From Ceratotherium simum simum (taxonomy: Eukaryota > Chordata > Mammalia > Perissodactyla > Rhinocerotidae), in NCBI RefSeq assembly GCF_000283155.1, contig NW_004454210.1, positions 2,448,884 to 2,512,883 of the forward strand: DNA of 64,000 nucleotides. The letters run 5' to 3'. The notes beneath the pieces were generated by a model. The model was not told where the DNA came from. It ran no database searches and saw only the letters and a list, made by a program, of their open reading frames with translations. Made by a program: the position numbers and the translations under genes. Positions 16,865 to 63,300 of this stretch are shown one piece after another (the stretch's first letter is position 1; every line of letters begins with the position of its first letter).

Positions 16865-17345
16865 AGCTTGTGACCTGAGTCATGTGACTTGACCTTTCAG
16901 AGTCTGTTTCTGCTTCTATGAAATCAAGAGAATGAGGGGCCAGCCCCATGGCTTAGCAGTTAAGTGCACGCACTCCACTACTGGCGGCCTGGGTTCGGAT
17001 CCCGGGCGTGCACCGACGCACCGCTTCTCCGGCCATGCTGAGGCTCCGTCCCACATACAGCAACTAGAAGGATGTGCAGCTATGACATACAACTATCTAC
17101 TGGGGCTTTGGGGGGAAAAAGGAGGAGGATTGGCAATAGATGTTAGCTCAGAGCTGGTCTTCCTCAGCAAAAAAAAAGAGGAGGATTGGCATGGATGTTA
17201 GCTCAGGGCTGATCTTTCTCACAAAAAAAAAAAGAGAGAGAGAGAATGATACTTCACAGAGGTGTTGGGAGGATTAAACCAAATCCCAGGGCCTCCAGCA
17301 CAGTGCCTGGCTGCATAGTAGGTGCACAGTAGGTGTTAGTGCTCT
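16865..17345 (+). mobile_element. MIR SINE split by an ERE
   Basis: MIR halves lie on both sides of the ERE at 16936-17240. Left: 'ttgtgacctgagtcatgtga', 'ctgcttctatgaaatcaaga'. Right: 'acagaggtgttgggaggatt', 'cagcacagtgcctggctgca'. Confidence 0.75.
16936..17240 (+). mobile_element. ERE SINE, long form with duplicated tail
   Basis: Head 'ggggccagccccatggctta', body to 'ctactggggctttggggg', then two copies of the tail unit 'gatgttagctcag' separated by A-runs. TSD AGAGAATGA at 16927-16935 and 17241-17249. Confidence 0.92.
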
Positions 17346-33631: not shown

Positions 33632-33919
33632 GGGGCCGGCCCCGTGGCTTAGCGGTTAAGTACACGCACTCCGCTACTGGCGGCCTGAGTTTGGATCCCG
33701 GGTGTGCACCGACGCACTGCTTGTCTGGCCATGCTGAGGCGGCGTCCCACATACAGCAACTAGAAGGATGTGCAACTACGACATGGAACTATCTACTGGA
33801 GCTTTGGGGAAAAAAAGGAGGATTGGCAATAGATGTTAGCTCAGGGCTGGTCTTCCTCAGCAAAAAGAGGACTGGCATTGATGTTAGCTCAGGGCTGATC
33901 TTCTTCCTCAAAAAAAAAA
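33632..33919 (+). mobile_element. ERE SINE inserted in the L1
   Basis: Head 'ggggccggccccgtggctta', duplicated 'gatgttagctcagggctg' tails, A-run. TSD GTCAATTAGA at 33622-33631 and 33920-33929, lying in L1 sequence on both sides. Confidence 0.94.
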
Positions 33920-34770: not shown

Positions 34771-35128
34771 TGAGCTGATAATTTTTCATTTGGATTACCT
34801 CTACATTTATAGGACCTGAACTCTATCTAAAAATGGAACTGACTACCACAAGAACACCCAGAACCTAGAAATACTCCTTCAGGGGACAGCCAGTGGTGGG
34901 AACACCATGGAGAATCTTTAAGCATCTGAGGACTGGCTTTGGGGACCTCTGAAGTTCCCCCCAGCCTTGAGATTCTGCTGCTGAGAAAGCTGCAACGAAA
35001 CAGCCTAAAAAGTACAGAAACTCTAGTCGGTGTGGAGGTCCTAACCACTGGCATTAGGAATCAGGTGTGTGTGTGGGGGTTGGTGCAGAAGCAGACTGGG
35101 GTTATCAATGGGGCATGACTGAGGCATT

Positions 35129-35301
35129 CTTAGTACCTAAGAATTTGAAACTTCCAGTCTCTTCTGTCAAGCACGTCAATTAAGGGGGCGTATAATGTAG
35201 CTCTGAGACCTGAGAGTCTAGTGCTGATGTTGTGGGATAGTGAAGTTTAGAGGTGGAAATGAATGGTACTTTAGGAGGGCTTCTGCATGTGGGTACTGTG
35301 T
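35129..35301 (+). repeat. Inverted repeat, left arm (173 bp)
   Basis: Reverse complement of 36021-36193 with a single difference (g at 35245 against t at 36077, an A on the complementary strand). The arm runs from 'cttagtacctaagaatttga' to 'catgtgggtactgtgt'. It shows no ERE, MIR or LTR signature. The arms are 719 bp apart. Confidence 0.97.
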
Positions 35302-36020
35302 GGATGTTTGGGGCATGGTTGTGGAGATGAACAGGAACAGGTGTCTACTGGATATCAGCCACAAATGAACAAGAAAAGCAGCAATATCACATTAGACAAA
35401 GGATGGAAATTAAACTGTTCTCTTACATCAGCACCAAAGTGGATAGCATGTAAAAGGCATTGTGTAAAGGTGATTTTCTTTAATATAAGATTTCATCTCA
35501 AAAGTCTCTGCAAGTTTTCTGTGAAATGGGATGAAGTTCAAATTCCCTAGTTCAACAGCCAAAGCTATATAAGTTCAATAGAAACCCTGACAAAACTGAC
35601 TTAAACATAAGGAAAAGTATTAGCTCTCTGGACTGAAAATCCAGAGGTAAGGTAGCTTCCATGTTTCAACAGCATAAGGATGTCATCCTGGGCCCAGATA
35701 TGTACTGTTTCTCAGCTTTACTGGCCTCAGCACGTTTCTTTCAAAGCCTAGAGACCCTTGTGGTTAAAACACTCAGGGCTATCTAAAATTAGAAACATGG
35801 CTTCTTCTGGGTTTATATAAAGTAGGCCTCTCCTTTCTTAGGAGTCCTGGGCAAACTTCCCCTTGGATCTCTCTGGGAAAATCACCCTGGCAAGGTGGAT
35901 GGGATTACTGATTGGCTCAAATTAATCAAGGCCCATCTGTGAATCTGTGCCTAGGGTCAGATTCCTAAGTGCAGGGCTACTTGGAAGGAAGAGGAGAAAT
36001 GAATGCTTCACAAGCAATCA

Positions 36021-36193
36021 ACACAGTACCCACATGCAGAAGCCCTCCTAAAGTACCATTCATTTCCACCTCTAAATTTCACTATCCCACAACATCAGCA
36101 CTAGACTCTCAGGTCTCAGAGCTACATTATACGCCCCCTTAATTGACGTGCTTGACAGAAGAGACTGGAAGTTTCAAATTCTTAGGTACTAAG
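36021..36193 (-). repeat. Inverted repeat, right arm (173 bp)
   Basis: From 'acacagtacccacatgcaga' to 'aaattcttaggtactaag'. Together with 35129-35301 it could form a long hairpin with a 719-nt loop. The spacer 35302-36020 contains an old interspersed repeat from about 35600 ('attagctctctggactgaaa', 'gattggctcaaattaatcaa'), whose end may reach the first bases of this arm. Confidence 0.97.
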
Positions 36194-36199
36194 CTGTTC

Positions 36200-37555
36200 C
36201 ACTTCAAGGAGAAAGGCCCGGGGTAAACACAAGGGAGATGTGATTTTGCCTTCCTTTAAGCAGTCTGAAGGTCGCAGGTGCCCCTTTTGGCATGTGCAGC
36301 TCTAGCTACTGAGTATGATTCCAAGCTTAATGACACAGAATATGTTTCTTAAATAAATAAGAAAGTCCTGAAATACAAGCCAATTACTTATGAGGGCTCA
36401 AAGAAGGAAAAGAATAGCAAGATTCATTTAAGCAGAGTGTCCTCTGCTTAATTTAGTTTCCTTATGTTTACGTGTTCGTCAGGTTTCTCTTCTAATTAAT
36501 ATAGCCTTGAATGTTGTTAGGAAAACCTAGCTGGGTAACACTTAACAAGAGTCAGCAGCTCACAGGAAAGTAGGGGGCCACTTCCCTAACTGCAGAGTAT
36601 CTGTACTTGAGTGCCCAAGTTAGAACCTCACCTTTGCAACCTCCCTGAGGCCTCTTGACCCTCTCCTTCCCTGGCTGGGGCAGCTCACAAGTGCTTGCCT
36701 GGGAATGTGGTGGCAACAGGTCTGCTGGCGTTGGAGAAGTGAAAATGAGGAAGTTCCAGACTCCAGGGTCATTGTAAGGCAGATAACACTCTAGTGCAGC
36801 TTCCAGCGAGTTCCTGTGGGTGGCCATAGGAGACCAGGCATAATTTCTCTGGTCCTTAATACATGACTAGGATTAACTCAGGGGCCTACATAAACTGCGG
36901 CAATGAGGTTGTGCTCACTGCAACCAAGCCTGGTTAGAGAGGTGGTGCCCTAGTTATACTTCCACCTAAGCCTCTAACCACTCTTGACAAAAAGGCACCA
37001 GCAAACTCCCTGGCCAGCCAAAAGCCTTTCAAGTCAGGAGAGGCTCAGAAGGCTCTGGCTGTTCTGCAGAGCTGAAGGAGACACCCCAGATGCAGCAAGG
37101 CTGCTAGCTCTAGGGGAAAGCAGCTCCACTAGCAGGAATGTACTCAAAGCAGGGCAATAGGCACAGTCTACTCCATGGAGGCAAACGGAGGGTGCAGTCT
37201 GCAGAGACCTTAAAAATAACAAAACTGACTATATCTGCTTTTTATCATCACCATTTGCTACAAACAATCCTAAACAATATTAGTGATAAAAGATCTCACC
37301 CAGCCAGAGACTGGAGACTACTCCTACGAGTGAGCTACCAGAGTTTTCCACCTTATCCACTAATGCTTTTGCAGGGAACTGAAACCAAGTACTCCACATC
37401 CATCCAAGGAAGGCCACCCTTCCTCCCTCTCTGATCCCTGGTCCTGCCAATACAGCTACATTGCTATGTTTATCAATAAACTTCTCTTCCTCATGACCCC
37501 AAGGGGCCTGACTGGCTGACCAGAACGCTGGAGGGTGGAAGAACATGGGCTCTGG
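36200..37555. other. Intergenic sequence, nothing recognised
   Basis: Between the inverted repeat and the MIR at 37560 I see no gene. The stretch lies in the ZNF638-DYSF intergenic region. Confidence 0.5.
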
Positions 37556-38502: not shown

Positions 38503-38748
38503 TTTTTTTGGTGATGAAGTTTAGCCTTGAGCTAACATCTGTTGCCAACCTTCCTCTTTTTTGCTGAGGAAGATTGGCCCTGGGCTAACATCCGTGCCCA
38601 TCTTCCTCTACTTTATATGTGGGACGCCTGCCACAGTATGGCTTGATAAGCAGTGTGTAGGTCTGTGCCCGGGACCAGAACGCGCGAATCCTGGGCTGCG
38701 TAAGCAGACCGCGGGAACTAAATTACTACACCACTGGGCCAGACCCTC
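38503..38748 (-). mobile_element. Older ERE-family SINE (reverse)
   Basis: 'ctgaggaagattggccctgg', 'gtgggacgcctgccacagta' and 'ctacaccactgggccagacc'. The body differs from ERE1 and fits an older ERE subfamily. A second short ERE head fragment follows at 38762-38838 ('ggcagcc'-less, ending 'ctacgccatcgggccaccc'). Confidence 0.8.
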
Positions 38749-39858: not shown

Positions 39859-40552
39859 CCCAAAAAACTGCCCCTAAAGGCGTTGCAGATGTGGCTGCGG
39901 TGTCACGTTTGTGTCATTAGGTGGCAGAGAGAAAAGAGGCTTGTCTACGCTCAGTGTTCTGGCCTGTGAACGTCTGGATGACGAATAGTCTGACACTTGG
40001 GAGAAAAAAAAAATTAACCTCTAAAAATAAAAAATGAAATTAAACAAATGAACCTCGAAGTTAATCTAGATGGTAACATAAATACCAAAGAAGAGCTACT
40101 CCAAGTGACTTCAAAGGCCTATAATCTGAATGTATAGCATTAGTAGAATACACCCTGAAGACAAAAGAAAAACTGAAGAAAACCACAGCAGAAGCAATGA
40201 ACATCCTAAGTAGCCACTGTTCCTTAAAGAAATGGCTGACTTCAGGTCTGGGGCAGGAAGTGTGTAAGGTGAGCCTGCAACATCTTCATATACAGATAGC
40301 AAGGAGTCTATAAAAATTAGTAGTGTCACGTTAAAAGGAATGATGAGTCAAATCAAAAAGGCCAAAAATGAGACAATTTGAGCATTAAGAAGGCTAACAA
40401 TGCAAAGGTTTGCAACATCAAATATATTAAAATTTATGAGTCCAAATTAATACTTAAAAAGAATTTATCATAGGTGGTAGATGTCAAGAAAACACATTTT
40501 GAAAAAACTGGTAAATAAAGGAAAAGCATCAAATATTTATCATGTCTTTCTT

Positions 40553-41105
40553 TCTTTTCTTTCTTTTTTTTTTGTGAGGAAGATCAGCCCTGAGCTAACA
40601 TCCATGCCAATCCTCCTCTTTTTGCTGAGGAAGACCGGCGCTGAGCTAACATCTACTGCCAATCCTCCTCCTTTTGTTTTTCTCTTTTTCTCCTCAAAGC
40701 CCCAGTAGAGGGGCCGACCCCGTGGCTTAGCGGTTAAGTGCGTGCGCTCTGCTACTGGCGGCCCGGGTTCGGATCCCGGGCGCGCACCGACGCACCGCTT
40801 CTCCGGCCACGCTGAGGCCGCGTCCCACATACAGCAACTAGATGGATGTGCAGCTATGACAGACAACTATCTACTGGGGCTTTGAGGGGAAAAAATAAAT
40901 AAATAAAATCTTTAAAAAAAAAAAAAAAAAAGCCCCAGTAGATAGTTGTGTGAACTCATAGTTGCACATCCTTCTAGTTGCTGTATGTGGGACGCCGCCT
41001 CAGCATGGCCAGACAAGCGGTGTTTCGGTGCACACCCGGGATCCCAACCCGGGCCGCCAGTAGTGGAGTGCACGCGATTAACCACTAAGCCACGGGGCCG
41101 GCTCC
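40553..41105 (-). mobile_element. ERE SINE (reverse) carrying a nested ERE
   Basis: The outer ERE runs from its T-rich tail with two 'gagctaacat' tail units to 'gccacggggccggctcc'. It is flanked by TATCATGTCTTTCTT at 40538-40552 and 41106-41120. It is interrupted by a plus-strand ERE at 40710-40928. Confidence 0.93.
40710..40928 (+). mobile_element. ERE SINE nested inside another ERE
   Basis: Full-length ERE1-type ('ggggccgaccccgtggctta' to an A-tail) inserted head-to-head in the ERE 40553-41105. The TSD AAAGCCCCAGTAGA at 40696-40709 and 40929-40942 comes from the body of the outer ERE, which dates it as the younger insertion. Confidence 0.94.
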
Positions 41106-43165: not shown

Positions 43166-43415
43166 CTTTTCTTTTTTTTTTGGTGAGGAAGATTGGCCCC
43201 GAGCTAACACCTGTTGCCAATCTTCCTCTTTTTGCTTGAGGAAGAGTGGCTCTGAACTAACATTGTGCCCGTCTTCCTCTATTTTGTACGTGGGTTGCCA
43301 CCACAACATGGCTTGATGAGTGGTATGGGTCTGCACCCCGGATCTGAACCCATGAACCTGGGCCGCCAAAGTGGAGTGCACTGAACATAACCAGTACGCC
43401 ACTGGGCCAGCCCCG
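43166..43415 (-). mobile_element. Older ERE-family SINE (reverse)
   Basis: 'ggtgaggaagattggccccg', 'gcttgaggaagagtggctct', 'gccaccacaacatggcttga' and 'gccactgggccagcccc'. Same older subfamily as 38503-38748. Confidence 0.85.
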
Positions 43416-62089: not shown

Positions 62090-63300
62090 CACATCTTCCT
62101 TGACTTAACAATGGGGTTATGTCCCAACAAACCCATCCTAAGTTGAAAATATCGTTAAGTCAAAAATGCATTTAAGGGGCCCACCCAGTGGCACAGTGGT
62201 TAAGTTTGCCTGCTCTGCTTCTGAGGCCTGGAGTTCACAGGTTCATATCCTGGGCATGGACCTACACACCAATCATTAAGCCATGCTGTGGTGGCATCCC
62301 ACATACAAAAATAGAGGAAGACGGGCACAGATGTTAGCTCAGGGCCAATCTTCCTGGGGGGGGGGGGGGGAGATCCCTGATGGTCTAGTGGTTAAAGTTC
62401 AGCACGCTCCACTTCGGTGACCCAGGTTTGGTTCCTGGGCATGGACCTACACCACCCGTCGGCAGATATGCTGTGGCGGCAACCCACATACAAAATAGAG
62501 GAAGACTGGCACAGACATTAGCTCACGGTCACTATTCCTCAAGCAAAAAGAGGAAGACTGGGAACAGATGTTAGCTCAGGGCACATCTTCCTCAGCCAAA
62601 AAAAAAAAAAAGAGCCAGCCCTGAAGGCCTAGTGGTTAAAGTTCGGCACACTCTGCTTCGGAAGCCCGGGTTTGGTTCTTGGGCGAGGAACCACACCATT
62701 CGTCTCTCGGTAGCCATGTTGTGGTGGCAGCTCACATAAAAGAACTAGAAGGACCTACAACTAGAATATACAACTACGTACTGGGGTTTTGGGGAGGAAA
62801 AAAAAAAAAGAGGAAGATTGGCAACAGATGTTAGTTCAGGGCAAACCTTTCCCAGCAAAAAATTAAAAAAAAAAAAAAATGCATTTAACACACCTAACCT
62901 ACTGAACACCATAGCTTAGCCTAGCCTACCTTAAACATGCTCAGAACACCTACATTAGCCTATGGTTGGGCAAAATCATCTAACACAAAGCCTATTTTAC
63001 AATAAAGTGTTGAATAGTTCATGTAATTTATTGAATATTGTACTGAAAGTGAAAAACAGATTGTATGGGTACAGAATGGTTCAAGAGTATGGGCTGTTTA
63101 CCCTCTCGATCACGTGGCTGACTGGGAGTTGCAGCTTGCTGCCGCTGCCCAGCATCACGAAAGAGTATCATATTGCTAGCCTGGGGAAAGATCAAAATTC
63201 AAAATTCAAAGTACAGTTTCTACTGAACACCTATCACTTTCACACCATCGTAAAGTTGAAAAATCATAAGGTGAACCATCGTTAAGTCGGGGACCTGTAG
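62090..63300. mobile_element. Tigger-like DNA transposon (TcMar), interrupted by three EREs
   Basis: The ends 'ccttgacttaacaatggggt' and 'accatcgttaagtcggggac' form an inverted pair. Between them run 'aacctactgaacaccatagc', 'ttgggcaaaatcatctaaca' and 'gaatattgtactgaaagtga', a common non-autonomous Tigger-type layout. The exact name is not assigned. Confidence 0.7.
62176..62874 (+). mobile_element. Three tandem ERE-family SINEs within one TSD pair
   Basis: Copies at about 62176-62357, 62371-62611 and 62612-62874, all plus strand. The first has an older ERE3/4-like head, the next two ERE2-like heads ('ctgatggtctagtggttaaa', 'ctgaaggcctagtggttaaa'). The outer flanks are AAAAATGCATTTAA at 62162-62175 and 62875-62888. 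A 15-G run (62356-62370) stands where the first copy's A-tail would be. Confidence 0.85.

What the first reader, a model, noticed from the sequence alone, without database searches (positions are those of the whole stretch)
35129..36193. Near-perfect 173-bp inverted repeat with a 719-bp spacer between ZNF638 and DYSF
Reading the two arms against each other gives 172 of 173 matches. The arms do not look like any SINE, LTR or DNA transposon, and both sit in sequence whose other repeats are much more diverged, so the duplication is recent. Such an arrangement can arise by template switching with inversion. It could extrude a cruciform, be prone to deletion or inversion of the spacer, or form a long double-stranded RNA if read-through transcription from ZNF638 reaches it. 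An assembly fold-back error is the main alternative.
Basis: seen in the sequence. Interest (0 to 1): 0.75.

Follow-up and report, generated by a model that had tools for sequence, protein, structure and literature searches.

The report
Recent inverted duplication downstream of ZNF638
A 173-base stretch of mammalian intergenic DNA appears to have been copied backwards about 0.7 kb away, most likely by a slip of DNA copying; it is a clean example of a known kind of mutation, with no shown function.

Summary
Arms 35129-35301 and 36021-36193 match at 172 of 173 positions, spacer 719 bp. It is the only self-match of at least 95% among the 148 listed of 100 bp or more; the next are 91.8%. All four edges run abruptly into unrelated sequence, so a fold-back assembly error is unlikely, though no reads were seen. 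No target-site duplication flanks the whole structure. Best reading: a small dispersed inverted duplication made by replication template switching, a known mutation class.

New here: edges sit at short hairpins. The left outer edge lies inside a perfect 8-bp-stem hairpin, and hairpins end exactly at 36020 and 36193. This fits left = source, right = copy, but the test is post hoc, weak (0.7-3% by random placement, 24% with the shortest tail), and a 9-bp direct repeat around the left arm points the other way. Both genes lie on the minus strand, so ZNF638 read-through would meet the right arm first.

Genome-wide copy number, direction, age, reads and any dsRNA or cruciform role remain untested: the genome search gave no answer in eight tries. 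Interest is low to moderate.

The parts
35129..35301 (+). left arm (source copy in the preferred model)
   Evidence: 172 of 173 identical to the reverse complement of 36021-36193
36021..36193 (-). right arm (inverted copy in the preferred model)
35302..36020 (.). 719-bp spacer
   Evidence: apart from one 64-bp, 76% inverted match to 36457-36516 it has only weak matches (E 0.13 or more) elsewhere in the window
35126..35144 (+). hairpin ATTCTTAG-TAC-CTAAGAAT across the left outer edge; three of its eight stem pairs use bases outside the arm
   Evidence: 48 such perfect stems with loops of 3-8 cover 0.53% of the window; its 42-nt segment was equalled by 19 of 200 shuffles
36000..36020 (+). 21-nt imperfect hairpin ending exactly at the base before the right arm (proposed first switch point)
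   Evidence: its 46-nt segment was equalled by 7 of 200 shuffles
36181..36193 (+). 13-nt hairpin CTTAG-GTA-CTAAG ending exactly at the last base of the right arm (proposed second switch point)
   Evidence: its 41-nt segment folds no better than shuffles (106 of 200)
35109..35117 (+). TGGGGCATG, first copy of the 9-bp direct repeat around the left arm (supports the rival)
35309..35317 (+). TGGGGCATG, second copy

Best explanation
A small dispersed inverted duplication made by replication template switching. Proposed course: a + strand growing left to right reached 36020, where its 3' end can fold into a hairpin and fray. It re-annealed upstream at the inner end of the left arm (ATC shared, then one mismatched base), copied 173 nt in reverse until its new 3' end could fold again (CTTAGGTACTAAG), and returned to its own template. 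In the four-point scheme this is order 3-2-1-4. Shown: the two arms, their edges and the predicted hairpins. Inferred: the event, its direction and which arm is the copy. I propose no selected function. Possible consequences, all untested: spacer inversion, gene conversion between arms, a 173-bp dsRNA if the interval is transcribed.
For: Arms 172/173 with abrupt edges on all four sides. No target-site duplication around the whole structure: longest shared word 3 bp with 12- and 20-nt flanks. No second copy of the arms in the window. The left outer edge is inside a perfect 8-bp-stem hairpin, a feature covering 0.53% of the window. Hairpins end exactly at 36020 and 36193; placing the geometry at random 20,000 times and taking the best of four source/direction models, 136 (25-nt tail), 255 (30 nt) and 626 (40 nt) placements did as well. 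Passages of PMC7954356: in apes 1-4-3-2 and 3-2-1-4 are the majority patterns and give single inverted repeats, and there is some extra ancestral secondary structure near point 1.
Against: The hairpin test was devised after seeing the folds. With 20-nt tails, which cut the 21-nt hairpin, it fails (4892 of 20,000). The second-switch hairpin is weak (4.8% of positions as good; 106 of 200 shuffles). No microhomology is visible at the second switch. If the inner GAT counts as arm, the first switch moves 4 bases and the hairpin no longer ends there. The 9-bp direct repeat would make the left arm the insert. 173 nt exceeds the 128-nt maximum of the ape gold-standard set. No outgroup was available, so the event itself is not observed.
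Confidence: 0.66

Rival explanations
1. The same class of event with the left arm as the copy: a reverse copy of the right arm was inserted at a break between two TGGGGCATG words, with short filler on each side, as in end-joining with a templated patch. The three bases of hairpin stem just beyond the left edge would be snap-back synthesis.
For: 9-bp direct repeat at 35109 and 35309, matched by 0.25% of 2000 random placements with 20-nt flanks, 0.65% with 30, 2.1% with 40. The hairpin of the copied end deepens over exactly the next three bases (-1.4 to -4.5 kcal/mol).
Against: It needs 11 and 7 nt of filler with no identified template between repeat and arm. The right arm also has a flanking direct repeat (AGGAGAAA, 8 bp; 1.45% of placements at 30 nt, 4.8% at 40), so such words do not decide. 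No 3'-terminal hairpin at its first switch point in either direction.
Confidence: 0.22
2. Assembly artefact: a chimeric or fold-back joining placed a reversed copy of one arm in the contig.
For: No reads could be examined; near-identity is what an artefact would give.
Against: A fold-back makes arms that run on to the turning point; here there is a 719-bp spacer not shared by the arms, and both arms end abruptly on both sides and differ at one base. It would need two false joins.
Confidence: 0.04
3. A 1065-bp DNA transposon with 173-bp terminal inverted repeats.
For: Overall shape only.
Against: No target-site duplication at its ends; no other copy in the window; the one spacer/arm ORF tested has no Pfam family.
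Confidence: 0.03

Closest known systems
Short-range template switch events, four-point model (PMC7954356; passages read)
   Same: A nearby segment copied as reverse complement, leaving a near-perfect inverted repeat; order 3-2-1-4 possible; predicted structure at switch points.
   Different: 173 nt copied, against a median of 12 and maximum of 128 nt in the ape gold-standard set of 1503; ancestral state unknown here.
Templated sequence insertions, class 2 (PMC5110952; passages read)
   Same: A short templated piece at a junction without poly(A).
   Different: Those are described as templated from a distant region; here the template is 0.7 kb away. The class is marked by microdeletion, microhomology or filler, which cannot be read without the empty site.
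Human-chimpanzee microinversions at inverted repeats (PMC8755829; passages read)
   Different: Those are 17-33-nt inversions in place, flanked by inverted repeats; here a segment is duplicated in inverted form. This repeat could be a substrate for later spacer inversion.

Membership tests
Four-point template switch event | reverse-complement copy of a nearby segment bounded by two junctions | tested here: met
   172/173, 719-bp spacer, abrupt edges
Four-point template switch event | ancestral sequence with one arm, descendant with two | not testable with these tools
   no related mammalian genome on hand; own-genome search unanswered
Four-point template switch event | size within the catalogued range | tested here: not met
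   173 nt against a maximum of 128 in the ape set; a range of one survey, not a definition of the mechanism
DNA transposon with terminal inverted repeats | target-site duplication at the outer ends | tested here: not met
   longest shared word 3 bp in 12- and 20-nt flanks, 4 in 30, 5 in 40
DNA transposon with terminal inverted repeats | several copies in the genome | tested here: inconclusive
Class 1 templated insertion (LINE-1 mediated) | duplication of at least 5 bp at both junctions, with poly(A) | tested here: not met
   the 9-bp repeat lies 11 and 7 nt from the left arm's edges, not at them; no A-run at either arm end
Structured RNA gene | match to a curated RNA family or tRNA | tested here: not met
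   only Rfam match in the window at gathering score is SNORA17 at 39867-39997; ARAGORN found no tRNA

The most novel reading that the evidence does not exclude
Both switch points of a long (173-nt) germline template switch fall exactly where the growing strand's own 3' end folds into a hairpin, so nascent-strand hairpins, more than microhomology, would set where the polymerase lets go and where it comes back, including in events longer than those catalogued in apes.
Probability: 0.15. Interest if true: 0.45.

Novelty: new member of a known kind. Interest (0 to 1): 0.24.

Why it matters
If lineage-restricted, it is a clean example of a long inverted templated copy in a mammalian germline with all four edges readable, and it suggests a testable rule about nascent-strand hairpins at switch points. 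It could also be a local source of spacer inversion or dsRNA. No effect on a gene was shown here.

Tried and rejected
Copies of the arm elsewhere: a 27-base arm word gave 0 exact matches in viral contigs and 0 in genome contigs; the 1121-bp region gave none in phages. Those collections are of viruses, bacteria and archaea, so the misses say little about copy number in this genome.

Old repeats crossing an arm edge would mark the ancestral arm: MIR, MER5A and L2-end probes recalled from memory gave no hit between 33735 and 37532 (E up to 10). The blastn attempt failed on gap settings and was not repeated; nhmmer was used. These three probes are not a repeat library.

Genes in the interval: 9 of the 203 ORFs were scanned against Pfam and none matched, among them the one ORF that overlaps the left arm's inner end, 35275-35547. 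A ZNF638 exon ORF was also among the nine without a match, so this test is weak.

Inverted similarity 35553-35615 with 36457-36516: score 51, against a best of 33 in 300 shuffles; random window pairs gave 34 at the 95th and 266 at the 99th percentile, the latter presumably SINE pairs. It is on another register than the arms and much more diverged, and is not used as evidence.

Age: one difference in 173 gives 3.2 My (0.08-17.9) at 0.9e-9 or 1.3 My (0.03-7.3) at 2.2e-9 per site per year; two in 177 gives 6.3 or 2.6 My. Both rates are recalled, and gene conversion would void the estimate.

Literature searches that gave nothing on long inverted repeats in this host or locus: (listings only). Searches gave the general papers.

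Odds of the single readings are unchanged.

Full report
Observation. The inverted repeat is in the sequence as described: 35129-35301 against 36021-36193, 172 of 173, spacer 719 bp; 177 bp with two differences if four more inner bases are counted. It stands out from the other repeats of the window. Of 181 self-matches at E up to 1e-6, 148 are 100 bp or longer (some pairs listed from both sides) and only this one reaches 95%; the next two are 91.8%. Apart from its partner, the arm's only other matches in the window are 17 and 21 bp long at E 0.1.

Surroundings. Peptides recalled from human proteins place ZNF638 C-terminal exons between 54.7 and 45.1 kb, the DYSF first coding exon at 22122-22033 and an alternative one at 13035-12943, all on the minus strand. 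The ZNF638 frame ends in TGA right after 45138. The repeat is thus about 9 kb downstream of the ZNF638 stop and 13 kb upstream of the nearer DYSF exon. Read-through from ZNF638 would meet the right arm first, after 24 AATAAA/ATTAAA words on that strand (words alone do not show termination). As RNA the whole interval folds with the arms paired, -542.6 kcal/mol, with no shuffle control at that length; that follows from the repeat and shows no use.

Edges. Compared in register over 40 nt, the sequences outside the arms are unrelated. Around the whole structure the longest shared word is 3 bp in 12- and 20-nt flanks, 4 in 30 and 5 in 40, so I see no target-site duplication. Around the left arm alone there is a 9-bp direct repeat, 11 and 7 nt from its edges (matched by 0.25% of 2000 random placements at 20 nt, 0.65% at 30, 2.1% at 40). 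Around the right arm alone there is an 8-bp one (1.45% at 30 nt, 4.8% at 40). Six segments and four flank sizes were tried, so neither is strong.

Hairpins. Folding the four edges as DNA showed ATTCTTAG-TAC-CTAAGAAT across the left outer edge (19 of 200 shuffles fold as well); three of its stem pairs use bases outside the arm, so the right arm has only the 5-bp stem (106 of 200). The right inner edge has a 21-nt hairpin, 36000-36020 (7 of 200), and the left inner edge nothing (162 of 200). Perfect 8-bp stems with loops of 3-8 number 48 and cover 0.53% of the window. The 21-nt hairpin ends exactly at 36020, the base before the right arm, and the 13-nt one exactly at 36193, its last base. Over all positions on both strands, 0.48% and 4.8% have 3'-terminal hairpins as stable, with 25-nt tails (the forced pairing in that script did not hold everywhere, and without forcing gives the same two values). 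Placing the same geometry at random and taking the best of four source/direction models, 136 (25 nt), 255 (30 nt) and 626 (40 nt) of 20,000 placements did as well, but 4892 of 20,000 with 20-nt tails, which cut the larger hairpin. The other three models have no terminal hairpin at their first switch. The test was thought of after seeing the folds, and the inner edge shifts by 4 bases if GAT is counted as arm. I treat it as a lead.

Explanation. The preferred account is one template-switch event with left as source and right as copy: point 1 at 36020, point 2 at 35301, point 3 at 35129, return before 36194, order 3-2-1-4. Passages of PMC7954356 and 1-4-3-2 the majority patterns giving single inverted repeats, and give a median copied length of 12 and a maximum of 128 nt in 1503 gold-standard ape events. 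This case is longer. I put template switching or templated repair with either arm as copy at about 0.88, and the left-as-source version at 0.66.

Age. Without gene conversion, one difference in 173 means a few million years at either recalled rate, and at most one difference after 55 My has a probability of about 1e-6 or less. The upper bound at the slower rate is 17.9 My.

Artefact. A fold-back error would not readily give two bounded arms with a 719-bp spacer of other sequence. No reads were seen.

Verdict. A real, clean, probably recent inverted duplication of a known kind in the sequence given; no evidence of function. One search for ZNF638, DYSF and inverted repeat together returned a single paper, a Cas13 review (listing only), so I know of no description of this locus in the library searched.

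Noticed in passing
39867-39997 (+): Full-length SNORA17-like H/ACA snoRNA match (128.8 bits), antisense to the two genes; a run of ten A starts 6 nt after its end and it lies next to an A-rich SINE-like tail. It looks like a retroposed snoRNA copy; target-site duplications were not tested.
   Followed up: partly
1951-2122: An 86-bp unit in two tandem copies with 96% matches: another fairly recent local duplication.
   Followed up: no
35553-35615 and 36457-36516: Older inverted similarity of 64 columns (76%) between the spacer and the right flank, off the register of the arms; perhaps two fragments of one old repeat.
   Followed up: partly
17116-17236, 33813-33914, 38504-38609, 40569-40677, 43177-43286, 62491-62602: Two-copy tandem doublings of a 48-56-bp unit with TTAGCTCAGG-like sequence, which look like SINE tails (the SINE label is recalled).
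   Followed up: no
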